Program-made: the position numbers and the translations under genes
Shown: positions 6,391-22,172 of the stretch, piece after piece
How positions within the stretch are numbered: the first letter of the stretch is position 1
How the letters are laid out: each line of letters opens with the position of its first letter
NCBI RefSeq assembly: GCF_902729425.1
Contig: NZ_CACVCH010000070.1
Location: 186,001-250,000 of the forward strand
DNA length: 64,000 nucleotides
Origin: Magnetospirillum sp. SS-4
Lineage (GTDB): Bacteria > Pseudomonadota > Alphaproteobacteria > Rhodospirillales > Magnetospirillaceae
Reading direction: 5' to 3'
Notes under the pieces: model-generated
Databases searched by the model: none
What the model was told of the DNA's origin: nothing
Seen by the model: only the letters and a program-made list of their open reading frames with translations

Positions 6391-6927
6391 CTATCTGGCG
6401 GATGCGGTGTCGAGCAAGGCCAGCAATCCGGCCAGGATCTGCCGGGGGCTGGGCGGGCAGCCGGGAATGTGCAGATCCACCGGCACCACCTCGTGGACGC
6501 CGCCCATCACGGCGTAGGAGCCCTTGAAGCAGCCGCCGTCCAGGGCGCATTCGCCCATGGCCACAACCCAGCGCGGCTGGGGCGTCGCCTCGACGGTGCG
6601 CCGCAGCGCCTCCGCCATGTTGCGGCTGACCGGGCCGGTGACCAGCAGCACGTCGGCGTGACGCGGGCTGGCGACGAAGCGGATGCCGAACCGTTCCAGG
6701 TCGTAGACCGGGCCGTTGACGGCGTGAATTTCCAGCTCGCAGCCATTGCACGAGCCGGCGTCGATCTCGCGGATGGCCAGCGAGCGCCCCAGGCGGTTCC
6801 GCGTCCGCTCGGCCAGGGCGCGGGCCAGTTCATCGACGCCGTCGGGGTCGGCGGGCGGCGCGTCCCGCAGGGTGTGCGGTCCCTTGATCAGATGGCGGAA
6901 CAAGATCTTGCCGATCGGGGGAATCAT
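6391..6927 (-). CDS. hyfI: Hydrogenase-4/complex I-like small subunit (NuoB/HyfI family)
   Basis: The 178-residue last gene of the complex operon. It is the peripheral [4Fe-4S] subunit that passes electrons to or from the large subunit, equivalent to NuoB and HyfI. Cysteines able to hold the proximal cluster are present: C60 and C63 in GSCNGCELE, C127 in MGEC, C133 in GGCF and C157 in IPGCPPSP. The ATG at 6927 overlaps the stop of the hyfG-like gene in an ATGA junction, so the two should be translationally coupled. Because the partner lacks [NiFe] ligands (see hyfG), this subunit may connect to a quinone-like or unknown site rather than to a hydrogenase centre. Confidence 0.9.
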   Translation of the reverse strand: MIPPIGKILFRHLIKGPHTLRDAPPADPDGVDELARALAERTRNRLGRSLAIREIDAGSCNGCELEIHAVNGPVYDLERFGIRFVASPRHADVLLVTGPVSRNMAEALRRTVEATPQPRWVVAMGECALDGGCFKGSYAVMGGVHEVVPVDLHIPGCPPSPRQILAGLLALLDTASAR

Positions 6928-8444
6928 AGGTCGTGCCCCGAATAGGAACAATTGAACGACTTGTTGCACAGCGGGAAGTCGGCGACGATGTTGCCCTCGA
7001 TGGCGGCTTCCAGCAGCGGCCACTGGAACCACGACGGGTCGTGGGCGTGGGCGCGCAGCACATGGCCGTCCTCGGCCATCCGAACCCATGACAGCACCTC
7101 GCCGCGAAAGCTTTCCACCATGGCCATGCCCTCGCCCGCCACGCGGGGCAGCGGCCGGCGCACCGCGCCGTCCGGCATCTCCAGCAAGATGAGGCCGAGC
7201 AGGCGTAGGCTTTCGCGCACCTCGTCGAAGCGAACCATCAGACGGGCGTTGACGTCGCCGTCAGTATAGACCGGCACCGCCAGATCCATCTGGTCGTAGG
7301 GGACTTGGCCGGGGGCCTTGCGGCTGTCGTGGCCGCGGCCCGACGCCCGCCCGACGAAGCCGCCGGCGGCGAAGCGGTGGACCAGGGAGGTGGCGACAAC
7401 CCCGGTGCCCAGCGTGCGGTCCGACAGCGACGGCGTGTTCTCGTAGATCAGGAAGGCGCGCTCGAAATCCCTGCGGAAGTGGGGCAGCAGGTGCCGCAAC
7501 GTTTCGGCGCCGTCCCCGGTCAGGTCGGCGGCGACGCCGCCCGGCTCCACCCGGTCCATCAGCAGGCGATGGCCGAACATGGCGTGATTGGCGCGCAAGA
7601 CCGTCTCGCGCAGCACGCCCATGTGCGACAGCATGATGGCGAAGGCGGCGTCGTTGCACACCGCGCCGATATCGAAGACGTGGTTGGCGACGCGCTCCAG
7701 CTCGGCCATCAGCGCCCGCAGCCAGAGGGCGCGCGGGGGAGGCTCGCAGCCCACCGCCGCCTCGACCGCCCGCGAGAACGCCAGGGCATGGGCCACCGTG
7801 GCGTCGCCCGACACCCGTCCGGCCACCCGAAGGGCCTGATCCAGCGGCCGGCCGGACAGCAGGCCGGAAATGCCCTTGTGGACATAGCCCAGCCGTTCCT
7901 CCAGCCGCACCACCGCCTCGCCCTGGCAGTGAAAGCGGAAATGCCCCGGCTCGATGACGCCGGCATGGACGGGTCCCACCGGAATCTGATGCAGGCCGTC
8001 GCCCTCGGCCTTGAGGAAGTCGTAGGCGTGGGGGACTTCCGCCGCCGGTTTCGGATTGGACGCCAGCGGCAGGCGGGACGGCCAGCGGCCGTGGTCCAGC
8101 CACGGGCGGCGATCCTCCAGCCCCATCGGCGCCAGCCCCCACAGATCGTGAATGGCCCGTTCCAGCCGGATCGCCGCCGGACGCGCCCGGCTCAACGACG
8201 GGAACCAGAACTCGGGACAGGGATGCGAGGCCACGGCGACCTCGCCGCTGTCGTCGTCGCGAAGCGCGACGTGAACCTCGTCCGGTTCGCCCCACATGGC
8301 CATCACCGACCACTCGGCCATGGCCATCTGCGCCACCATGGCCCGCCAGGCGCGCAGGTCGAGACGAAACCGCGGAAACGGCCGGTGCCCGGGCACCGGC
8401 TGGCCCGAGGACAGGAAGTCCAGCAAGGTGACGTGTCCCATCAT
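6924..8444 (-). CDS. hyfG: Hydrogenase-4/complex I-like large subunit (HyfG/NuoCD family), [NiFe] ligands absent
   Basis: A 506-residue fusion of an N-terminal NuoC-like (30 kDa) domain, about residues 1-135, and a NuoD/HyfG-like (49 kDa) domain. In true group 4 hydrogenases this subunit holds Ni-Fe through an N-terminal CGxC and a C-terminal DPCxxC. Here the first site reads RVSGDATVAH (residues 210-219), with Ser212 and Ala215 where the cysteines should be. The C-terminus ends in a stretch with only C493 and C499 and no DPCxxC. The family is therefore clear but hydrogenase activity is not expected; it fits the energy-converting hydrogenase-related (Ehr) group. ATG 8444 overlaps the upstream stop (ATGA); the next codon, ATG 8441, is an alternative start. 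Confidence 0.9.
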   Translation of the reverse strand: MMGHVTLLDFLSSGQPVPGHRPFPRFRLDLRAWRAMVAQMAMAEWSVMAMWGEPDEVHVALRDDDSGEVAVASHPCPEFWFPSLSRARPAAIRLERAIHDLWGLAPMGLEDRRPWLDHGRWPSRLPLASNPKPAAEVPHAYDFLKAEGDGLHQIPVGPVHAGVIEPGHFRFHCQGEAVVRLEERLGYVHKGISGLLSGRPLDQALRVAGRVSGDATVAHALAFSRAVEAAVGCEPPPRALWLRALMAELERVANHVFDIGAVCNDAAFAIMLSHMGVLRETVLRANHAMFGHRLLMDRVEPGGVAADLTGDGAETLRHLLPHFRRDFERAFLIYENTPSLSDRTLGTGVVATSLVHRFAAGGFVGRASGRGHDSRKAPGQVPYDQMDLAVPVYTDGDVNARLMVRFDEVRESLRLLGLILLEMPDGAVRRPLPRVAGEGMAMVESFRGEVLSWVRMAEDGHVLRAHAHDPSWFQWPLLEAAIEGNIVADFPLCNKSFNCSYSGHDL

Positions 8445-9931
8445 CCCAGTATCCCCGCCACCGCCTGGAACCACTCCACCAGTTCCCTCGGCAGGTAAAG
8501 GCCGGCGACCAGCACCAGCAGCATGTGAACCCATAACGGCGTCAACGCCAGGATGCTCGACAGCGTCGAGGCGCGGGCATGGGCGTGGACCGGCTTCGTC
8601 GGCTCGCCGAACGCCATCATCTGCAAGCGGCTGGCCAGGGCGCCGAACGCCAGCAGCAATCCCAGCACCAGCGGAATCGCCAGCAGCGGCTGGCGGGCGA
8701 AGGTGGAACTGACCACCAGGAACTCGCTCATGAAGACGCCCATGGGCGGCATGCCGGCAATGGCGAGAACCGCCAGGACGAACCCCCAGCCCAGCACCGG
8801 ATGGGACGAGGTCAGGCCGCGGATGTCGGCGATGCGCTTGGTTCCCGCGTTCTGGCTGATGATGCCGACCGCGAAGAAGATGGCCGACTTGGTCAGCGAA
8901 TGCATGGTCATGTGCATCAGGCCGGCGAAATTGGCGAGCGCGCCGCCCATGCCGAAGGCGAAGGTGATCACCCCCATGTGCTCGATCGATGAATAGGCGA
9001 ACAGCCGCTTGATGTCGCCGCGCCGGTACAGCATGAACGCCGCCAGGAACAGGCTCGACAGCCCCATCATCACCAGCAGCGGCCCCGGCGTCAGGGCGTT
9101 CTCGTTGGCGCTGATCAGCATCTTGAACCGCAGCAGGGCGTACAGCGCCACGTTGAGCAGCAGCCCCGACAGCACCGCCGAGATCGGCGTCGGCCCCTCG
9201 GCATGGGCATCGGGCAGCCAGGAATGCAGCGGCGCCAGACCGACCTTGGTGCCGTAGCCCACCAGCACGAACACGAAGGCCAGATTCATCAGATCGGGCT
9301 GAAAGGCGTGGGCCTGCTTGATCATCATGGTCCAGGCCATGGCCTCGGCGCCGTCGCCCATGACCGGCTGCGCCGCCAGATAGACCAAGGTGGTGCCGAA
9401 CAGCGCCAGCCCGATGCCGACCGAGCACAAGATGAAATACTTCCACGCCGCCTCGATGGCTTCCCTGGTGCGGTACAGGCTGACCATCAGAACCGTGGTC
9501 AGCGTCGCCGATTCCACCGCCACCCACATGACGCCGGTGTTGTTGGCGGTCAGCGCCAGCAGCATGGTGAACAGGAAGGCCTGGTACATGGAATGGTAGA
9601 AGCGCAGATGCAGTTCGGACAGACGCTCGGACGCGGTTTCGCGGGCGATGTAGGCGGCCGAGAAGACGGCGGTGGTCATGCCGACGAAGGTGGTCAGCAG
9701 GACCAGATAGATGTTGAAGTCGTCGATGAACAGCAGCTTGTTGGGCGGCGGCCGCAACCGCAGCAGCAGCAGCGAGGCGCCGAAGGTGATGGCCGACGCC
9801 GCCACGTTGACCCAGGTCGCCACCCGCCAGTCCCGCAGCACCGCCAGGAAGCCGGCGGCGCCCAGCGGCACCCCCAGTATCCACAGCAGCGGGTTGTCGG
9901 CACCGGGCAGCGATGACAGATATCCGATCAT
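8441..9931 (-). CDS. hyfF: Hydrogenase-4 component F-like antiporter subunit (NuoM/N family)
   Basis: A 496-residue, very hydrophobic protein of the Mrp antiporter/NuoL-M-N family, with about 13-14 membrane spans. It is expected to be a proton- or cation-pumping subunit of the complex. The family signature around the key lysine and histidine is seen in GTKVGLAPLHSWLPDAHAEGPTPISAVLSG, and a conserved glutamate lies in WVAVESATL. Length is close to E. coli HyfF (526). Its ATG at 9931 overlaps the hyfE stop and its own stop overlaps the hyfG start, both as ATGA junctions. Confidence 0.92.
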   Translation of the reverse strand: MIGYLSSLPGADNPLLWILGVPLGAAGFLAVLRDWRVATWVNVAASAITFGASLLLLRLRPPPNKLLFIDDFNIYLVLLTTFVGMTTAVFSAAYIARETASERLSELHLRFYHSMYQAFLFTMLLALTANNTGVMWVAVESATLTTVLMVSLYRTREAIEAAWKYFILCSVGIGLALFGTTLVYLAAQPVMGDGAEAMAWTMMIKQAHAFQPDLMNLAFVFVLVGYGTKVGLAPLHSWLPDAHAEGPTPISAVLSGLLLNVALYALLRFKMLISANENALTPGPLLVMMGLSSLFLAAFMLYRRGDIKRLFAYSSIEHMGVITFAFGMGGALANFAGLMHMTMHSLTKSAIFFAVGIISQNAGTKRIADIRGLTSSHPVLGWGFVLAVLAIAGMPPMGVFMSEFLVVSSTFARQPLLAIPLVLGLLLAFGALASRLQMMAFGEPTKPVHAHARASTLSSILALTPLWVHMLLVLVAGLYLPRELVEWFQAVAGILG

Positions 9932-10596
9932 TGCCGGTCGCCCCGCCAGGTTTCCAGGTCATGCAGATCCAAGGTGTCGAACCGTTCGCGAATCCGGAAG
10001 AAGAAGATGCCGAACAGGGTCATGGCCACCAGCACCGAGAAGGCGATGGAGATTTCCACCACCAGGGGCATGCCCTTGGCCGACACCGCAGCCAGGATCA
10101 GGCCGTTCTCCAGCGCCATGAAGCCGACCACCTGCGACACCGCGTTGCGCCTTGTGATCATCATCAGCAGGCCCAGCAGCACCACGCTCATGGCCAGGGC
10201 CAGGCTTTCCCGGGTCAGGGCGGCGGCGTTGGCGGTGACCGGCAGCACCAGAAGGATGGACAGCGCCACCAACCCCACCCCGGCCATCATGGTCCAGCCG
10301 ATGGACATGGCGGTTTCCACCGAACGCTGGATACCCAGCTTCTCGACCAGCCAGTGCAGCGCGAAGGGAACGATCATCGCCTTGAACACCAGGGCGATGA
10401 CGGCGGTGACGTAAAGGTGGGGGGCGTCCTGGATGTGGGCCTGCCACGCCGCCGCCGCCGCCAGCGCCACCGCCTGGAAGGCAAAGGTGTTGAGCACCGC
10501 GAACAGCCGGCGCTGGTACAGAAGCTGGAAACCGGCCATCAGCACGGTGGCGCCGATCAGATGCGCCAGTTCGTAGGAAATCTGGCTGATGGCCAT
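9928..10596 (-). CDS. hyfE: Hydrogenase-4 component E-like membrane subunit
   Basis: A 222-residue protein with about 6-7 predicted membrane helices. Its second half resembles NuoK, with a conserved glutamate in VGFMALENGLILAAV. HyfE subunits combine a NuoK-like part with extra N-terminal spans, and length and position between the HyfC-like and HyfF-like subunits fit this. ATG 10596 overlaps the upstream stop by one base (TGATG). The C-terminus is short, polar and cytoplasmic. Confidence 0.88.
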   Translation of the reverse strand: MAISQISYELAHLIGATVLMAGFQLLYQRRLFAVLNTFAFQAVALAAAAAWQAHIQDAPHLYVTAVIALVFKAMIVPFALHWLVEKLGIQRSVETAMSIGWTMMAGVGLVALSILLVLPVTANAAALTRESLALAMSVVLLGLLMMITRRNAVSQVVGFMALENGLILAAVSAKGMPLVVEISIAFSVLVAMTLFGIFFFRIRERFDTLDLHDLETWRGDRQ

Positions 10597-11543
10597 CACA
10601 CCGCCTCCGACACGTAGAGGAAGATGGTGGCAAGCAGGCCCAGCAGCAGGGCGCCCCCCAGGAAATCGGCGTAGCGGAACACCCGCATCTTGGCGATCAT
10701 GGTCTCGAACACCGCCAGCGCGGTGGCCAGGACGAAGCACTTGGCGAGAAAGCCGCCCAGCCCCAGGGCGAGGCCGGCCGTGCCGGCTCCCGGCGTCGCG
10801 ATACCCCACGGCGCGAAGATGCCGCCGATCAGCGCCATGAACAAGGTCAGGCGCACCATGCCCGCGCCCTCCATCAGGGCCAGATGGCGGCCGGAATATT
10901 CCAGCACCATGGCCTCGTGCACCATGGTCAGTTCCAGATGGGTGGCGGGATTGTCGATGGGAATGCGGCCGTTCTCGGCGATGGCGACCATGACCAGCGC
11001 CGCCAGGGCGAGGCCCATGGACACCTCGATGCCGATGCCGCCGCCCAGGATGAAGCCGATGATATGGGCCGGCGAGGTGGTGCCCGAGATCAGCGACAGC
11101 GAAAAGCTGACCATCAGCATGGCCGGCTCGGCCAGCGAGGCGATCATCATCTCGCGCGACGCGCCCAGGCCGCCGAACGAGGTTCCGACATCCATGCCGG
11201 CCAGCGCCGTCCAGAACCGCGCCACCGCCAGCAGGGCCACCAGGGCGATCAGATCGGCGGCCGGCGCCAGGACGATGTCGGTGGTGAAGGTGGGAATGAT
11301 GGCGGCGGCCAGCCACACCGCCGCGAAGGTGACATAGGGGGCGGCGCGGAACACCCACGACGCCGAATGGGCCACCACGGCTTCCTTCTGCAACAGGCGG
11401 TAGATGTCGCGATAGGGTTGCAGCGGCGAGGCGCCGATGCGGCCGTTCAGCCGCGACTTCACCAGCCGCACCCAGCCGGTGATCAGCGGCGCCAGCGCCA
11501 CCACCAGGAAAATCTGGGCGATCTGAGAGAGAAGGGAGTTCAT
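10596..11543 (-). CDS. hyfC: Hydrogenase-4 component C-like membrane subunit (NuoH family)
   Basis: A 315-residue membrane protein of the NuoH/HyfC/HycD family, which anchors the peripheral arm and forms part of the chamber beside the catalytic subunit. Family landmarks are the early RLNGRIGASPLQPYRDIYRL loop, the SLAEPAMLM stretch, and the acidic loop AENGRIPIDNPATHLELTM followed by EAMVLEYSG. About 8 membrane spans are predicted. ATG 11543 overlaps the hyfB stop (ATGA). Confidence 0.92.
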   Translation of the reverse strand: MNSLLSQIAQIFLVVALAPLITGWVRLVKSRLNGRIGASPLQPYRDIYRLLQKEAVVAHSASWVFRAAPYVTFAAVWLAAAIIPTFTTDIVLAPAADLIALVALLAVARFWTALAGMDVGTSFGGLGASREMMIASLAEPAMLMVSFSLSLISGTTSPAHIIGFILGGGIGIEVSMGLALAALVMVAIAENGRIPIDNPATHLELTMVHEAMVLEYSGRHLALMEGAGMVRLTLFMALIGGIFAPWGIATPGAGTAGLALGLGGFLAKCFVLATALAVFETMIAKMRVFRYADFLGGALLLGLLATIFLYVSEAV

Positions 11544-13549
11544 TTCTGCTGCCTCACCGCCACCACCAGCAGCATGAACACCAAGGTGGCGAACATCATC
11601 AGCAGATAGCGCCGCACCGTCAGGAACTGCATGCGGTTGACCCGGTCGGCGATGAAATCCACCACCCGGCCGATGCCGAGATAGAGGTAGACCCAGATGG
11701 GATCGATCAGCCGGACCTTCAGGCTGGCCGGGGCCATGTCGCCGGGCTCGGGCATCCGGACGGTCTCGCGCGCTCCGAACAACGACGAGCAGAACACCCG
11801 GCGCAGCGGCTGGGCGAAGCTCTGGCCGGTGTACTGGCTTTCGGGAATGTCCTCCGGGTGGCCGCAATCCCAGGCATCGGCGCGGCGCACCCGGGTGGTG
11901 CCGAAACCGTGGACCAGCAGGATGGTGACCGCGAACAGGCCAAGGCCGACCATCACCAGCACGGTGCCGGAATAAGAGCCCCTGGTCGAACTGACCGGCG
12001 ACAGCCACGGCCAGCCCAGATCGGACGACACCGCGAAGTGAACCCCGGTCAGCGGAAACACCACCCCGGACAGGGCGTCGGTCACCGTCACCGGCATGGC
12101 GCCCAGGACGATGCACAGCGCCGCCAGCGCCGCCATGGGCAGCCGCATGGAATAGGGCAACTGGTGCGCCTCGGCGGCCTCCCTCGACCGCGGCCGCCCC
12201 AGGAAGGCGATGCCAAACGCCCGCACGAAGCACGCCGCCGCCAGCGCCGCCGCCAGCGCCAGCATGGCGCCCACCACCGGCACTCCGAATTTCATGGCCC
12301 AATGAGGCAGGCTCGGCCCCTTGAACAGCGACTGGAAGATCAGCCATTCCGACACGAACCCGTTGAGCGGCGGCAGCGCCGCGATCGCCGCCGCGCCGAC
12401 CAGGGTGGCGGCGCCGGTCCACGGCATGCGCTTCAGCAAGCCGCCCAGCCGGCCGAGGTCACGGTGGCCGGTGGCGGTGATCACCGCGCCGGCCGACAGG
12501 AACAGCAGGGTCTTGAAGATGGAGTGGTTGACGATGTGATAAAGCCCCGCCACCAGCGCCAGCGCCGCCAGCATGTTCTCGCCGCTGCCCTTGAAGGCGA
12601 TGGCGAGGCCAAGGCCGATCATCACCACCCCGATATTCTCGACGGTGGAATAGGCCAGCAGCGTCTTGAGGTCGTCCTGCAACACGGCGTACAACACGCC
12701 CAGCACGGCGGTGACGCCGCCGATCACCATGATCGCCGGCCCCCAGCCCCACGGCACCTGGCCGTGCAGGTCGAACAATATCCGGATCAGGCCGTAGAGG
12801 GCGACCTTGGTCATCACCCCGCTCATCAGCGCCGAGACGTGGCTGGGCGCCGCCGGATGGGCCAGCGGCAGCCAGGCGTGCAGCGGCACCAGCCCGGCCT
12901 TGGACCCGGCCCCCAGCAGCGCCAGCGCCACCACCAGGAACCCGGCCGTCGAATCCAGCGTCGCCTTGCGCATGGCGGGGAAGGAATAGCCGCCCTCCGC
13001 CCCGGCCAGCAGGCCGAAGCAGGTCAGCAGGCAGAACGTGCCGAATGTCGCCATCATCAGATAGATCATGGCCGCCGAGCGGTTCTCGGGCTTCTTGTGA
13101 TCGGCCAGCACCAGCAGCCAGGACGCCAGCGACATGAATTCCCACGACACCAGGAACATGAAGGCGTCGTCGGCGATCAGCACCGCGTTCATGCCGAACA
13201 GGAACAGGGGAAAGAACGGGGTGACCCGCCGGGGTTCGGGCAGATGCGAGCAATAGCCGATCCCGTAGAACGACGCCGCCGCGGTGGACAGGTTGACCAC
13301 CACCATGAACAGGGCCGACAGGTTGTCGAGGCGGAAATGGGCCTGCATCCACGGCAGGCCGATGGGCAGCACCACCTCGGGACCGGTTCCGGGCGTGGTT
13401 CCCAGATGCTTCAGCCCGCCGGCCAGCAGCACCAGCGAGGCGAGGCCGCAGCAGAAATAGACCACGCGATGCCGCCACATCTCGCCCCCGGCCAGCACGC
13501 CAAGCAGGGCGAGCGCCAGAAGAGCCGACAGGGCGGACGCGATCAGCAT
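11540..13549 (-). CDS. hyfB: Hydrogenase-4 component B-like antiporter subunit (NuoL family)
   Basis: The first structural gene of the operon encodes a 669-residue antiporter-type membrane subunit with about 14-16 spans. The channel signature is visible in GSKAGLVPLHAWLPLAHPAAPSHVSALMSG, with further conserved lysine/glutamate positions in VSWEFMSLASW and LLAYSTVENIG. Length matches E. coli HyfB (672). ATG 13549 is preceded by GAGGCGG and also lies inside the end of a 14-codon leader frame (13543-13587). A sigma70-like promoter lies at 13612-13639. The operon has no HyfA/HyfH ferredoxin-like subunit and no hydrogenase maturation gene. Confidence 0.93.
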   Translation of the reverse strand: MLIASALSALLALALLGVLAGGEMWRHRVVYFCCGLASLVLLAGGLKHLGTTPGTGPEVVLPIGLPWMQAHFRLDNLSALFMVVVNLSTAAASFYGIGYCSHLPEPRRVTPFFPLFLFGMNAVLIADDAFMFLVSWEFMSLASWLLVLADHKKPENRSAAMIYLMMATFGTFCLLTCFGLLAGAEGGYSFPAMRKATLDSTAGFLVVALALLGAGSKAGLVPLHAWLPLAHPAAPSHVSALMSGVMTKVALYGLIRILFDLHGQVPWGWGPAIMVIGGVTAVLGVLYAVLQDDLKTLLAYSTVENIGVVMIGLGLAIAFKGSGENMLAALALVAGLYHIVNHSIFKTLLFLSAGAVITATGHRDLGRLGGLLKRMPWTGAATLVGAAAIAALPPLNGFVSEWLIFQSLFKGPSLPHWAMKFGVPVVGAMLALAAALAAACFVRAFGIAFLGRPRSREAAEAHQLPYSMRLPMAALAALCIVLGAMPVTVTDALSGVVFPLTGVHFAVSSDLGWPWLSPVSSTRGSYSGTVLVMVGLGLFAVTILLVHGFGTTRVRRADAWDCGHPEDIPESQYTGQSFAQPLRRVFCSSLFGARETVRMPEPGDMAPASLKVRLIDPIWVYLYLGIGRVVDFIADRVNRMQFLTVRRYLLMMFATLVFMLLVVAVRQQK

Positions 13550-13611: not shown

Positions 13612-13639
13612 AGCATACCACTTATCGCGATTCGCGCAA
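13612..13639 (-). promoter_or_regulatory. Sigma70-like promoter of the hyf-like operon
   Basis: TTGCGC at 13634-13639 and TATGCT at 13612-13617 (minus strand) are separated by 16 bases. They lie 63 bases upstream of the hyfB start and 25 bases upstream of the leader GTG. The spacer contains the near-palindrome CGCGAATCGCG, which could be an operator. No competing promoter is obvious in the 130-base gap between hyfB and the next upstream gene. Confidence 0.45.
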
Positions 13640-18360: not shown

Positions 18361-18383
18361 GAACACTCCCCGCACGGGTGTTC
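18361..18383 (+). promoter_or_regulatory. Inverted repeat in cbbM upstream region
   Basis: GAACAC (18361-18366) and GTGTTC (18378-18383) form a perfect inverted repeat, with CCC and GGG pairing nearly continuously inside it. It lies 61 bases upstream of the cbbM ATG. It could be an operator for a dyad-binding regulator or a 5' leader hairpin. No cbbR gene is present in the window, so assignment to CbbR would be a guess. Confidence 0.35.
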
Positions 18384-18443
18384 TCCCCCGGCCGCATTCC
18401 AGGCACATTGAGCGCCAAGAAAGCCAAAGGGAGACGTCGGATC

Positions 18444-19820
18444 ATGGATCAATCCAAGCGCTACGCCAATCTCGCCCTCGACGAGGACAGCCTGATCAGG
18501 GGTGGACGCCATGTTCTGTGCGCCTACCGCATGAAGCCGAAGGCCGGATACGGCTATCTCGCCACCGCCGCCCATTTCGCCGCGGAATCCTCGACCGGCA
18601 CCAATGTGGAGGTCTGCACCACCGACGACTTCACCCGCGGCGTCGACGCCATCGTCTATCAGGTCGACGAACAGCGCGAACTGATGAAGATCGCCTATCC
18701 CATCGACCTGTTCGACCGCAACATCATCGACGGCCGCGCCATGATCGTGTCGTTCCTGACGCTGGCCATCGGCAACAACCAGGGCATGTCGGACGTCGAA
18801 TACGCCAAGATGCTGGATTTCTACGTGCCGCCGGCCTATCTGCGGCTGTTCGACGGCCCCGCCTGCAACATCAGGGACATGTGGCGGGTGCTGGGCCGGC
18901 CGCAGGAGAACGGCGGCATGGTGGTCGGCACCATCATCAAGCCGAAGCTGGGCCTGCGGCCCAAGCCGTTCGCCGACGCCTGCCACCAGTTCTGGCTGGG
19001 CGGCGACTTCATCAAGAACGACGAGCCCCAGGGCAACCAGGTCTTCGCCCCGCTGAAGGAGACCATCCGGCTGGTGGCCGACGCCATGGACCGCGCCCAG
19101 GACGCCACCGGCCAGCCCAAGCTGTTCTCGGCCAACATCACCGCCGACGACCCGGCCGAGATGCTGGCGCGCGGCCATTACATCCTGGAGACCTTCGGCA
19201 AGAACGCCAGCCACGTCGCCTTCCTGGTGGACGGCTATGTGGGCGGCCCCACCGCCATCACGCTGTGCCGGCGCAACTTCCCCAACCAGTTCCTGCACTA
19301 TCACCGGGCCGGCCACGGCGCCGTCACCTCGTCCCAGTCCAAGCGCGGCTACACCGTGCTGGTCCACATGAAGATGGCCCGCCTGCAAGGCGCGTCGGGC
19401 ATCCACACCGGCACCATGGGCTACGGCAAGATGGAGGGCGAGCCCGGCGAGAAGATGGTGGCCTACATGCTGGAGAACGACGTGGCCGAGGGCAGCCATT
19501 TCCGCCAGGAATGGCTGGGGATGAAGGCCTGCACCCCCATCATCTCGGGCGGCATGAACGCGCTGCGCCTGCCCGGCTTCTTCGCCAATCTGGGCCACTC
19601 CAACGTCATCCAGACCTCGGGCGGCGGCGCCTTCGGCCACAAGGACGGCGCCGTGGCCGGCGCGCTGTCGCTGCGCCAGGCCCATCAGGCCTGGATCCAG
19701 GGGGTCGATCTGGTGGACTACGCCAAGGATCATCCCGAATTGAAGGGAGCGTTCGAATCCTTCCCCGCCGACGCCGACAATCTCTATCCCGGCTGGCGCG
19801 AAAAGCTGAAGATCGCCTGA
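18444..19820 (+). CDS. cbbM: Form II ribulose-1,5-bisphosphate carboxylase/oxygenase
   Basis: A 458-residue form II RuBisCO large subunit, a homodimer-type enzyme with no small subunit (R. rubrum type, 466 residues). It carboxylates RuBP in the Calvin cycle. Catalytic K166 lies in [10 protein letters not shown] and the carbamylated K191 in [10 protein letters not shown], matching R. rubrum numbering. The later loop HRAGHGA and the phosphate-binding [11 protein letters not shown] and SGGGAFGH stretches are intact. ATG 18444 follows AAAGGGAGA. It lies 28 bases upstream of cbbP, forming a two-gene cbbMP unit that ends at the terminator at 20759. Form II enzymes suit high-CO2, low-O2 conditions, consistent with the neighbouring hemN. 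Confidence 0.97.
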
Positions 19821-19848
19821 CGCGGCCGAGAACAGGGGGGAAGAATCC

Positions 19849-20742
19849 ATGTCGAGAAAACATCCCATCATCGCGGTGACCGGTTCGTCGGGGGCCGGCA
19901 CCAGTACGGTCAAGGAAGCCTTCGAGCATATGTTCCGGCGCGAGGGCATCAAGCCGGCCATCATCGAGGGCGACTCGTTCCACCGCTTCAACCGCGCCGA
20001 CATGAAGAAGGCCATGGCCGAGGCCGAACGGAAGGGATGCACCAATTTCAGCCATTTCGGCCCCGAGGCCAACCTGTTCGCCGAACTGGGCGAACTGTTC
20101 GGCAGCTACGGCGATACCGGCCGCGGCCGCCGGCGGCTGTACATGCATAACGACGAGGAAGCGGCCCGCTTCGCCCATCTCGGCGTCAAGTCCGGCGAGT
20201 TCACCCCGTGGGAGGACGTGCCCGAGGATACCGACTGCCTGTTCTACGAGGGACTGCACGGCTGCGTCGTCACCAAGGACGTCAATGTCGGCCAGTTCGC
20301 CGACCTGAAGATCGGCGTGGTGCCGGTGATCAACCTGGAATGGATTCAGAAGATCCACCGCGACACCAACCAGCGCGGCTATTCGGAAGAGGCGGTGATG
20401 GAAACCATCCTGCGCCGCATGCACGACTACGTCCATTACGTGGTGCCGCAGTTCAAGCTGACCGACATCAACTTCCAGCGGGTGCCCATCGTCGACACCT
20501 CGGACCCCATCATCGCCCGCGACATCCCCACCGCCGACGAGAGCCTGGTGGTGATCCGCTTCCGGAAGCCCGACCGCTTCCGGGTCGATTTCCCGTTCCT
20601 GCTTCAGATGCTGAAGGATTCATGGATGAGCCGGCGCAACACCATCGTGGTCCCCGGCGGCAAGATGGGTCTGGCCATGGAGCTCATACTAACCCCGATC
20701 CTTCGTCGGATCATGGAGGACCGAAGGTCCGTCCTTGGCTGA
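19849..20742 (+). CDS. cbbP: Phosphoribulokinase, class I
   Basis: A 297-residue kinase that converts ribulose-5-phosphate and ATP to RuBP, the substrate of the adjacent RuBisCO. The P-loop GSSGAGTST is near residues 12-20, followed by GDSFHRFNRADMKKAM and a YEGLHG motif. Length and the octameric bacterial (class I) sequence type fit proteobacterial enzymes. ATG 19849 is preceded by AGGGGGGAAG. It is co-transcribed with cbbM. No other Calvin-cycle genes are in the window. Confidence 0.96.
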   Translation: MSRKHPIIAVTGSSGAGTSTVKEAFEHMFRREGIKPAIIEGDSFHRFNRADMKKAMAEAERKGCTNFSHFGPEANLFAELGELFGSYGDTGRGRRRLYMHNDEEAARFAHLGVKSGEFTPWEDVPEDTDCLFYEGLHGCVVTKDVNVGQFADLKIGVVPVINLEWIQKIHRDTNQRGYSEEAVMETILRRMHDYVHYVVPQFKLTDINFQRVPIVDTSDPIIARDIPTADESLVVIRFRKPDRFRVDFPFLLQMLKDSWMSRRNTIVVPGGKMGLAMELILTPILRRIMEDRRSVLG

Positions 20743-20804: not shown

Positions 20805-22010
20805 TCAGGCCGTCAGCGCCCGTTCCAGGTCCTCGACCAGATCGTCGCCGTCCTCCAGCCCCACCGACAGGCGCACCAGTCCCTCGCCGATGCCCATGGC
20901 CAGCTTGTCGTCGGGCGACAGCCGCTGATGGGTGGTGGTCCAGGGGTGGGTGATCAGGCTCTTGGAATCGCCGAGATTGTTGGAGATGTCGATCAGCTCC
21001 AGATTGTCGAGCAGGCGATAGGCCGCCGCCTTGCCGCCCTTCAGCTCCAGCGCCAGGATCGAGCCCCAGCCCCGCATCTGCCGGGCCGCCAGTTCGTGCT
21101 GGGGATGGCTTTCCAGGCCGGGATAGAGCACCCGGGCCACTTCGGGGCGGCCCTCCAGGAACCGGGCGATCTTCATCGCGTTGGCGCAGTGGCGTTCGAT
21201 TCTGAGGTCCAGGGTCTCCAGCCCCTTCAGCAACACCCAGGCGTTGAACGGCGACAGCGCCGGGCCGGTGTTGCGCAGGTAAGGCCCCAGAACGTCCTGG
21301 CAGAAGGCCAGATCGCCCAGCACGGCGCCGCCCAGGCAGCGCCCCTGGCCGTCGATGTGCTTGGTGGCGGAATAGACCACGATGTCGGCGCCGAGATCGA
21401 GCGGGCTTTGCAGGATCGGGGTGGCGAAGACGTTGTCGACCACCAGGCGGGCGCCGGCCTTGTGGACCAGGTCGGCGACGGCCCGGACGTCGATGATTTC
21501 CAGGGTGGGATTGGCCGGAGTCTCGATGAAGACGCAGGCGGTGGGCTTGGACAGCGCCCGTTCCCAGGCCCCGATGTCCGGGCCGTCGACGAACACCCGC
21601 TCGATGCCGAAGCGCGGCATCAGTTCGTTGATGATCCACTGGCACGAGCCGAACAGGGCACGCGACGCCACCACCCGGTCGCCGGCCTTGAGCTGGCACA
21701 TCAGGGCGGCATGGACGGCGGCCATGCCCGACGCGGTGGCGCGGCAGGCGGCGGCGCCCTCGATCTCGGCCAGACGCTGCTCGAACATGGCCACGGTCGG
21801 ATTCTTGAAGCGGGAATAGACCATGCGGTCCAGGGTGCCGTCGAAGCTGTGTTCGGCCTCGGCGGCGCTGCCGTAGACATAGCCCGAGGTCAGGAACAGG
21901 GCCTCCGACGTCTCGGAAAAGCCGGTCCGCTCCAGGCCGCCGCGCACCTGACGGGTGCGGGGGCGCCAGGATCTTGCCGGACGGGAGGTGCTGGAATCGC
22001 CGCTGCTCAT
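20805..22010 (-). CDS. metZ: O-succinylhomoserine sulfhydrylase
   Basis: A 401-residue PLP enzyme of the Cys/Met metabolism family. MetZ makes homocysteine directly from O-succinylhomoserine and sulfide. The PLP lysine is in VYSATKHIDGQGR. Other family signatures are YSRFKNPTV, ASGMAAVHAAL, the IETPANPTLEIID cofactor aspartate region and LITHPWTTTHQRL. The MetZ assignment over MetB or MetC is supported by overall sequence and by the SAM-II riboswitch, which in alphaproteobacteria precedes metA, metX and metZ. ATG 22010 is chosen because AGGAGA lies 7 bases upstream; ATG 22028 in the same frame has no such site. Confidence 0.93.
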   Translation of the reverse strand: MSSGDSSTSRPARSWRPRTRQVRGGLERTGFSETSEALFLTSGYVYGSAAEAEHSFDGTLDRMVYSRFKNPTVAMFEQRLAEIEGAAACRATASGMAAVHAALMCQLKAGDRVVASRALFGSCQWIINELMPRFGIERVFVDGPDIGAWERALSKPTACVFIETPANPTLEIIDVRAVADLVHKAGARLVVDNVFATPILQSPLDLGADIVVYSATKHIDGQGRCLGGAVLGDLAFCQDVLGPYLRNTGPALSPFNAWVLLKGLETLDLRIERHCANAMKIARFLEGRPEVARVLYPGLESHPQHELAARQMRGWGSILALELKGGKAAAYRLLDNLELIDISNNLGDSKSLITHPWTTTHQRLSPDDKLAMGIGEGLVRLSVGLEDGDDLVEDLERALTA

Positions 22011-22031
22011 GCTGGTCTCCTGAAACACGAA

Positions 22032-22063: not shown

Positions 22064-22082
22064 CGGACACGGAGCGCGCAAA

Positions 22083-22137
22083 CCTCTTTAGCGGAATGTT
22101 TAACGTGGCCGCAATCCGGTCGGACAAATCACCACGG
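22083..22137 (-). promoter_or_regulatory. SAM-II riboswitch aptamer
   Basis: Read on the minus strand, the segment has the layout of the SAM-II (metA motif) aptamer: a P1 arm CGTGG (22132-22136), a TGATTTG loop, a GC-rich middle, the returning arm CCACG (22104-22108), then TTAAA, and the conserved 3' element GCTAAAGAGG (22083-22092). These conserved blocks and the H-type pseudoknot arrangement are diagnostic for SAM-II. SAM binding should turn down metZ, closing the methionine-synthesis loop. Confidence 0.9.
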
Positions 22138-22142
22138 CCAAG

Positions 22143-22172
22143 ACATAGCGCCCAGCCGGGACGGCCGTCAAG
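22143..22172 (-). promoter_or_regulatory. Sigma70-like promoter of metZ
   Basis: TTGACG (22167-22172) and TATGTC (22143-22148) are spaced by 18 bases on the minus strand. Transcription would begin about at the 5' arm of the SAM-II aptamer, exactly as needed for the riboswitch to be the leader. Confidence 0.6.

What the first reader, a model, noticed from the sequence alone, without database searches (positions are those of the whole stretch)
6391..13549. Six-subunit hydrogenase-4-like complex whose catalytic subunit lacks the [NiFe] cysteines
Seen: the large subunit has SGDA (S212, G213, D214, A215) where group 4 hydrogenases have CGxC. Its C-terminus has C493 and C499 spaced by five residues instead of DPCxxC. 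The small subunit keeps its cluster cysteines and the membrane subunits keep channel residues. No maturation genes and no ferredoxin-type subunit are in the operon. Known: hydrogenase-related (Ehr) complexes without Ni-Fe ligands exist but have no settled substrate. Inference: this is a redox-driven or redox-coupled ion pump with an unknown electron partner, which most automatic annotation would mislabel as hydrogenase-4.
Basis: partly seen in the sequence, partly recalled or inferred. Interest (0 to 1): 0.65.

Follow-up and report, generated by a model that had tools for sequence, protein, structure and literature searches.

The report
Hydrogenase-like pump without its metal site
A six-gene bacterial membrane machine that software calls a hydrogenase has lost the nickel-iron site of hydrogenases, is nevertheless strictly conserved in many bacteria, and most likely couples ferredoxin and quinone electron transfer to ion pumping.

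Summary
The operon hyfB-C-E-F-G-I (6391-13549, minus strand) encodes a complex whose large subunit has SGDA and NCSYSG where [NiFe] hydrogenases have CGxC and DPCxxC. This is not decay: of 141 distinct relatives 137 keep none of the four ligand cysteines and none keeps more than one, while K495 (141), D214 and D265 (140 each) stay. All 6 Hyf/Hyc and 3 Coo/Ech-type control genes keep four. A tree puts it outside true group 4 and complex I (split 100/100), and 35 of 56 carrier genomes lack HypD, so a hidden [NiFe] site is very unlikely. It is best filed as an Ehr ("energy-converting hydrogenase-related") complex, a known kind of unknown function. New leads: (1) a NiFe-less sister clade lies behind fluoride riboswitches (7 of 7 loci; one holds only the large subunit), and 4 of 4 of its small subunits tested carry fused ferredoxin-type domains, suggesting a ferredoxin donor; (2) a 0.9-Mb relative kept the operon while complex I decayed, beside menaquinone, fumarate reductase and ATP synthase genes. 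Best explanation: ferredoxin-coupled, ion-translocating quinone oxidoreductase (0.45). Pumping, donor and acceptor are inferred.

The parts
11540..13549 (-). hyfB: NuoL/MrpA-like antiporter subunit, 669 aa
   Evidence: NCBIfam NF005086 850.9 bits, cut-off 667; channel residues E137, K217, K248, K346, E401
10596..11543 (-). hyfC: NuoH-like subunit, 315 aa
   Evidence: PF00146; best PDB hit HycD 7z0s_D
10908..10943 (-). hyfC loop THLELTMVHEAM (residues 201-212), in place of the AEAEQEL loop of E. coli HyfC, HycD and NuoH
   Evidence: 111 of 113 distinct relatives match the motif
9928..10596 (-). hyfE: hydrogenase-4 subunit E / NuoK-like membrane subunit, 222 aa
   Evidence: NF008556 84.1 bits, below its cut-off of 136; PF00420 23 bits, below its cut-off of 26.1
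8441..9931 (-). hyfF: second antiporter-like subunit, 496 aa
   Evidence: NF005043 816.3 bits, cut-off 533; E140, K229, K348, E403
6924..8444 (-). hyfG: NuoC/NuoD- and HycE-like large subunit, 506 aa (or 505 aa from the next ATG at 8441)
   Evidence: predicted fold matches HycE 7z0s_E Z 39.8 (472 aligned, rmsd 3.0) and NuoCD 7p7j_C Z 39.1 (461 aligned, rmsd 2.8), tied
7800..7811 (-). S212-G213-D214-A215, at the first ligand pair of [NiFe] hydrogenases
7650..7652 (-). D265, at the position of a conserved NuoD Asp (D in 5 of 5 NuoD genes, F in 6 of 6 Hyf/Hyc genes)
6930..6965 (-). C-terminal motif N494-K-S-F-N-C-S-Y-S-G-H-D505, in place of DPCxxC
6391..6927 (-). hyfI: NuoB-like small subunit, 178 aa
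   Evidence: model pLDDT 87.7, best match complex I NuoB-type chain 7aqr_B Z 19.5 (133 aligned, rmsd 1.8), MBH 6cfw_J Z 18.5
6457..6750 (-). span of the four cluster cysteines of HyfI (C60, C63, C127, C157)
13612..13639 (-). probable sigma-70 promoter of the operon: TTGCGC, 16 nt, TATGCT, similar in part of the genus
   Evidence: alignment of upstream regions; position counted from the sequence printed; not tested experimentally

Best explanation
An Ehr-type, NiFe-less relative of the hydrogenase-4/complex I family, working as a ferredoxin-coupled, ion-translocating quinone oxidoreductase. Proposed steps: (1) a soluble low-potential 2[4Fe-4S] ferredoxin exchanges electrons directly with the single [4Fe-4S] cluster of HyfI (cluster ligands shown by sequence; donor inferred); (2) electrons reach the former NiFe cavity in HyfG, now marked by S212, D214, D265, K495, N498 and S500, next to a rebuilt HyfC loop, where a quinone is reduced (site shown by conservation only; substrate and geometry inferred); (3) the change is passed through HyfC and HyfE to HyfF and HyfB, which move H+ or Na+ (channel residues present; transport inferred). 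It could run in reverse, using the membrane potential to reduce ferredoxin from quinol.
For: Not a hydrogenase: ligands absent throughout the family; HypD absent in 35 of 56 carrier genomes. Selected, not decaying: K495 in 141 of 141, D214 and D265 in 140 of 141 distinct genes. Quinone hint: D265 matches the NuoD Asp (5 of 5 genes) and not Hyf/Hyc (F in 6 of 6). Ferredoxin hint: in the sister clade 4 of 4 small subunits tested carry Fer4-type domains fused in front of the NuoB domain, dicluster type in three and single-cluster type in the fourth; the two clades lie on one side of a 100/100 split and share a lengthened HyfC loop. Respiratory context: an unnamed 0.9-Mb genome of the same family keeps all six genes (hyfC split over two contig ends), with cluster and site motifs intact, but has no NuoD, no NuoF, no hit for E. 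coli NuoE, G, H or I and only an 87-aa NuoB remnant; MenA, FrdB and GlpC exceed NCBIfam cut-offs, an FrdA fragment and FixABCX match below them; ATP synthase alpha and gamma are clear; a 64-aa 2[4Fe-4S] ferredoxin is present. Channel residues are kept in the antiporter subunits. Strict FNR and sigma-54 patterns: 0 of 106 upstream regions, unlike an anaerobically induced formate hydrogenlyase (recalled).
Against: No activity was measured. The NuoD His and Tyr that hold the quinone head (roles recalled) are replaced by I164 and G213, so the classical quinone site is not kept. D265 is T or A and K495 is A in the fluoride clade, so the two clades do not share one site chemistry. The active-site loops of the model have pLDDT under 50, so no cavity could be inspected. 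The small subunit of the Allomeiothermus plasmid complex lacks all four cluster cysteines, so at least one relative may not use electrons at all. 52 of 56 carrier genomes also have NuoD, so it is no general substitute for complex I. FixX was found at E 1e-10 in only 7 of 57 carriers, none over cut-off, and not in the window's genome, so FixABCX is not the general partner. The ferredoxin of the small genome is closest to YfhL, just below its cut-off, and may serve something else. The E. coli queries are weak probes: NuoH did not find the hyfC that is there.
Confidence: 0.45

Rival explanations
1. Redox-driven ion pump as above, but the substrate in the former NiFe cavity is not quinone: a small cytoplasmic acceptor such as a sulfur species, as in the archaeal Mbs complex (recalled).
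For: D214 and K495 and the HyfC loop occur in none of the hydrogenase-type or NuoD rows compared; the quinone His and Tyr positions are changed.
Against: D265 is shared with NuoD; the reduced genome points to a menaquinone chain.
Confidence: 0.2
2. A cation/proton antiporter or pH-homeostasis device of Mrp type in which the redox module is regulatory or vestigial.
For: One relative (L180) has lost all four cluster cysteines while HyfB/HyfF channel residues stay; the sister clade sits in fluoride-resistance islands, where proton and ion balance matter.
Against: 119 of 121 distinct SGD small subunits keep all four cluster cysteines, one is cut off by a contig end and one is L180; the sister clade adds further Fe-S domains.
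Confidence: 0.15
3. Energy-coupled CO2/bicarbonate handling, since the operon lies about 5 kb from RuBisCO and phosphoribulokinase-like genes.
For: Adjacency in this window only. 39 of 57 carriers against 59 of 242 other genomes of one sample have a RuBisCO-family gene, not corrected for kinship and including RuBisCO-like proteins.
Against: 0 of 16 related genomes show any of ten flanking window genes within the fetched 20 kb; many RuBisCO-positive carriers come from one family (f51) in which many genomes without a detected operon also have RuBisCO.
Confidence: 0.05
4. A cryptic [NiFe] hydrogenase with replacement ligands.
For: Overall similarity to HycE.
Against: No row keeps more than one ligand cysteine; HypD missing in 35 of 56 carrier genomes, 22 of 41 among the near-complete ones; placement outside group 4.
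Confidence: 0.03

Closest known systems
Ehr (energy-converting hydrogenase-related) complexes, as named in PMC10284858, PMC6349859 and PMC10432482
   Same: Group-4-like subunits without the Ni-Fe binding residues; function unknown (passages read).
   Different: Named Ehr reference sequences were not in my tree. This branch has six subunits, no dedicated electron-input subunit, and its own SGD / NKSFN[CL]SY / THLELTMxHEAM signature.
E. coli hydrogenase-4 (Hyf) and formate hydrogenlyase (Hyc, 7z0s)
   Same: Shared gene order and folds; HyfG best PDB match 7z0s_E.
   Different: No [NiFe] ligands; no HyfA, D, H or J in the operon; different HyfC loop.
Complex I / NDH-1 (NuoB, D, H, K, L-N)
   Same: Fold; D265 as in NuoD; antiporter residues.
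   Different: No NuoE, F, G or I in the operon; cluster motif CNGC instead of tandem CC; quinone His and Tyr positions changed.
Fluoride-riboswitch-controlled genes named 'formate hydrogen lyase' in Weinberg 2010 (PMC2864571, passage read)
   Same: The clade found here has the same six subunits in six of seven loci, no NiFe ligands and a lengthened HyfC loop.
   Different: Small subunit fused to ferredoxin-type domains (4 of 4 tested), riboswitch upstream, different site residues, loop longer by two residues instead of three in five of six and of a different sequence in the sixth; the window's genome has no such riboswitch. That the 2010 genes are this very clade is my inference.

Membership tests
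Group 4 [NiFe] hydrogenase (Hyf/Hyc) | Four cysteines binding Ni and Fe in the large subunit | tested here: not met
   0 of 4 in the window protein; controls 6 of 6 Hyf/Hyc genes and 3 of 3 Coo/Ech-type genes (labels mine) keep four
Group 4 [NiFe] hydrogenase (Hyf/Hyc) | Dependence on Hyp maturation | tested here: not met
   HypD in only 21 of 56 carrier genomes; the window's own genome was not in that search and has other hydrogenases
Group 4 [NiFe] hydrogenase (Hyf/Hyc) | Phylogenetic placement among them | tested here: not met
   Split of SGD and fluoride clades from Hyf, Coo/Ech-type and NuoD rows 100/100 (unrooted; two long-branch rows fell inside SGD)
Group 4 [NiFe] hydrogenase (Hyf/Hyc) | H2 turnover | not testable with these tools
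   -
Complex I | NADH input module NuoE, F, G and NuoI | tested here: not met
   None in the operon
Complex I | Quinone-site residues of NuoD (His, Tyr, Asp) | tested here: not met
   His position I164, Tyr position G213; only the Asp (D265) is kept (roles of the residues recalled)
Ehr | Group-4/complex I subunit set with NiFe ligands missing | tested here: met
Ehr | Small-subunit cluster ligands kept | tested here: met
   C60, C63, C127, C157
Ehr | Clusters with published Ehr large subunits | not tested
   No named Ehr reference sequence was in the tree
Fluoride-riboswitch clade | Fluoride riboswitch (RF01734) upstream and fused ferredoxin domain | tested here: not met
   No RF01734 in the window or own genome; HyfI matches only the NuoB domain
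Mbx/Mbs of Thermococcales | Placement and site residues of MbxL | tested here: inconclusive
   6u8y_L is a weaker PDB hit (1.4e-22) than HycE and MBH; its residues were not inspected

The most novel reading that the evidence does not exclude
The SGD complexes and the fluoride-riboswitch 'formate hydrogenlyases' are two branches of one NiFe-less, ferredoxin-linked pump family that lost hydrogenase chemistry once. The SGD branch is a minimal ferredoxin:quinone pump (or a reverse ferredoxin charger); the fluoride branch re-energises cells in which HF entry and F- export act as a proton leak.
Probability: 0.3. Interest if true: 0.8.

Novelty: new member of a known kind. Interest (0 to 1): 0.5.

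Why it matters
Ehr complexes are widespread, mislabelled as hydrogenases, and without a settled function. This family gives concrete handles: a three-residue site signature (D214, D265, K495) to mutate, a fused ferredoxin in the sister clade as a clue to the donor, a fluoride-controlled sister clade, and a reduced genome in which the complex outlived complex I. If the reading holds, many 'hydrogenase-4' annotations in Proteobacteria should become ferredoxin-linked pumps, changing predicted H2 metabolism and energy budgets.

Tried and rejected
Conserved partner genes: clustering of ORFs around 80 named relatives plus the window gave mainly hyf genes, antisense-looking ORFs and scattered neighbours; the commonest plausible non-hyf gene was a small HTH protein in 19 of 81 loci. 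In 25 further loci an XRE-cupin regulator recurred in 10 (Pfam run on one of them). Neither names a substrate. RuBisCO adjacency was rejected as chance. Strict FNR and sigma-54 patterns: 0 of 106 regions; a loose sigma-54 pattern hit 7 of 106 against 6.8 in shuffles, and a sigma-70-like pattern 16 against 2.5 (a first extraction, used only 29 regions). Fluoride control of the SGD clade: no RF01734 in the window, in 7 named or unnamed loci or in L178-L182; the other SGD loci were not searched. FixABCX as general donor: rejected. RuBisCO co-occurrence: inconclusive because of kinship. The structure model could not show the cavity: residues 141-190 and 478-506 are under pLDDT 50. Rows L164/L166 sit on a branch of length 4.72 inside SGD; I treat that as long-branch error. 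G203, a partial hit, was dropped from the carriers. My first residue table counted some control genes twice under two locus names (8 Hyf/Hyc and 6 NuoD rows); the recount by distinct gene is (6 and 5), and the SGD count stayed 141. HyfC loop: 111 of 113 distinct SGD rows match; the exceptions are L148 and L066, which is masked there.

Literature: no paper in the library held all of fluoride, riboswitch, hydrogenase, NADH dehydrogenase and CrcB; one, on PFAS and E. coli, judged off-topic from its listing, held fluoride, crcB and formate hydrogenlyase. Searches returned nothing; searches listed nothing that I judged useful beyond papers already seen. Two papers recalled as early Ehr sources were not held.
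Full report
What is there. On the minus strand, 6391-13549, six genes overlap by 1-4 bases: hyfB, C, E, F, G, I. A probable sigma-70 promoter (TTGCGC, 16 nt, TATGCT, 13612-13639) resembles that of part of the genus; strict FNR and sigma-54 patterns were found in 0 of 106 upstream regions. HyfB and HyfF exceed NCBIfam's hydrogenase-4 cut-offs and HyfI that of a NuoB subfamily; HyfG, HyfE and HyfC exceed none. The best PDB matches of HyfG are HycE of formate hydrogenlyase, the archaeal membrane-bound hydrogenase and complex I. The AlphaFold model (pLDDT 78.6) matches HycE and NuoCD equally well (Z 39.8 and 39.1, tied), and HyfI matches NuoB-type chains (Z 19.5, 133 residues aligned).

The metal site is gone and something else is conserved. 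SGDA replaces CGIC and NCSYSG replaces DPCYSC. Of 141 distinct SGD-type large subunits, 137 have none of the four ligand cysteines and four have one; 6 of 6 Hyf/Hyc and 3 of 3 Coo/Ech-type genes have four. K495 is in 141, D214 and D265 in 140, S212 in 137 and S500 in 136. The variable C493 (121) and C499 (128) are not substitutes. D265 is the position of a NuoD aspartate (D in 5 of 5) that is F in 6 of 6 Hyf/Hyc genes; the NuoD His and Tyr positions hold I164 and G213 (their quinone roles are recalled). HyfC has THLELTMVHEAM where E. coli HyfC, HycD and NuoH have AEAEQEL and a three-residue gap; 111 of 113 distinct SGD rows match the motif. 119 of 121 distinct SGD small subunits keep all four cluster cysteines. 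The channel residues of HyfB and HyfF are kept.

Family and tree. The gene is in 17 of 17 genomes of the genus searched, own included, and in 56 other genomes of a 299-genome sample of the phylum that I counted as carriers. The 80 named loci kept, the best of 571, are mostly Alphaproteobacteria, with some Betaproteobacteria and a few others. Plasmids and secondary replicons add members in Azospirillum, Rhizobium, Cupriavidus, Burkholderia, Rhodococcus and Allomeiothermus. A maximum-likelihood tree of 78 rows separates the SGD and fluoride clades from Hyf/Hyc, Coo/Ech-type and NuoD rows by a 100/100 branch; the fluoride clade is 100/97 (unrooted; two very long-branch rows fall inside SGD). HypD is absent from 35 of 56 carriers (22 of 41 near-complete ones), so a hidden [NiFe] site is very unlikely. 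I file it as Ehr, a kind described in print as lacking the Ni-Fe binding residues and of unknown function (passages of PMC10284858, PMC6349859 and PMC10432482). I did not have named Ehr sequences in the tree.

A sister clade with a clue. On plasmids of Burkholderia, Caballeronia, Mycobacterium and Alicyclobacillus and in two unnamed relatives there is a divergent NiFe-less relative. In the four annotated loci it lies near CrcB, DUF190, enolase, pyrophosphatase or MutS genes; L185, L186 and L192 carry no annotation. Fluoride riboswitches (RF01734) lie upstream on the same strand in 7 of 7 loci: 125-261 bases before the first aligned hyfC codon in five, 524 bases in the Mycobacterium locus with a NUDIX gene between, and before the large-subunit gene in Alicyclobacillus, where none of the other five subunits was found in the stretch. 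The 2010 paper that described this RNA named formate hydrogen lyase genes among its targets (PMC2864571, passage); I infer that at least some of these are this clade. In 4 of 4 small subunits tested, Fer4-type domains precede the NuoB domain. Gene fusion of this sort suggests that a ferredoxin feeds the HyfI cluster. The HyfC loop is also changed there: two residues longer with THIEVYM in five loci, and different (THTGTIEFGM) in Mycobacterium; but D214, D265 and K495 are not shared. The window's branch has no fusion and no fluoride control.

A natural deletion experiment. An unnamed 0.9-Mb genome of the same family (completeness 100, GC 0.33) retains hyfB, E, F, G and I intact and hyfC split over two contig ends. 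NuoD and NuoF are absent; E. coli NuoE, G, H and I give no hit, though NuoH also misses the hyfC that is there; an 87-aa fragment of NuoB remains. HypB gives no hit and HypD none. MenA, FrdB and GlpC exceed NCBIfam cut-offs; FrdA (a fragment at the edge of a fetched stretch) and FixABCX match below them; ATP synthase alpha and gamma are clear, subunit a is weak and c was not found; a 64-aa 2[4Fe-4S] ferredoxin close to YfhL is present. So in this lineage the complex outlived complex I beside a menaquinone/fumarate chain. This is one genome and rests on homology. Elsewhere NuoD coexists in 52 of 56 carriers.

Mechanism. Shown by sequence: subunits, loss of the metal site, conserved new site, cluster ligands, channel residues. 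Inferred: ferredoxin as donor, quinone as acceptor, ion pumping, direction. Against: no classical quinone residues; the relative L180 has lost all four cluster cysteines; no conserved partner gene was found; FixX in only 7 of 57 carriers. I therefore put 0.45 on the full mechanism and keep a non-quinone acceptor (0.2) and a non-redox transporter (0.15) as serious rivals.

Novelty. The complex is a new member of a known kind. What I did not find in print is the SGD/K495 signature, the changed loop shared with the fluoride clade and the ferredoxin fusion; the library lacks most subscription papers and I read only listings and passages, so this is a limited statement.

Noticed in passing
L180 11260-12132 (Allomeiothermus silvanus plasmid pMESIL01): Ehr-type operon whose small subunit has lost all four cluster cysteines (T, D, E, S) while the antiporter residues checked stay: a candidate non-redox version.
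   Followed up: partly
L183 6167-13893, L190 9064-16797, L191 4600-12654, L184 9537-11239: NiFe-less relatives behind fluoride riboswitches in fluoride-resistance islands; small subunits fused to ferredoxin-type domains where tested; in L184 only the large subunit was found.
   Followed up: partly
L181 4877-12024 and L190 9064-16492 (one Burkholderia multivorans plasmid): The plasmid carries an SGD-type and a fluoride-type complex about 20 kb apart.
   Followed up: no
L148 / L045: Divergent SGD member with altered entry loop (GPVFGGVEASSQF), altered C-terminal motif and altered HyfC loop.
   Followed up: no
L187 and L188: Very divergent relatives (large-subunit motifs RINA[LV]DS and SFG) with neighbouring membrane-protein-like ORFs in two genomes of one family, on an extremely long branch; function unknown.
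   Followed up: no
L218 6107-6370 (genome G027): 87-aa NuoB remnant in a 0.9-Mb genome that keeps the Ehr operon: complex I decayed, Ehr stayed.
   Followed up: yes
L173 7901, L174 3547 and 5926, L175 4482: The window's genome holds other [NiFe] hydrogenase-type large subunits; two show both CGxC and DPCxxC by pattern, one only the first and one only the second.
   Followed up: partly
window 22067-22145: SAM-alpha riboswitch (RF00521), minus strand, just upstream of a 407-aa ORF at 20805-22028 that looks like a MetZ-type enzyme (not searched).
   Followed up: no
window 18378-20742: RuBisCO large-subunit gene (PF00016 hit) and a phosphoribulokinase-like ORF (by eye) about 5 kb from the operon; not found near the operon in 16 related genomes.
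   Followed up: yes
L136 736-1440 and nine other loci: An XRE-cupin regulator gene recurs next to hyfB in 10 of 25 loci; its ligand might hint at the function.
   Followed up: partly
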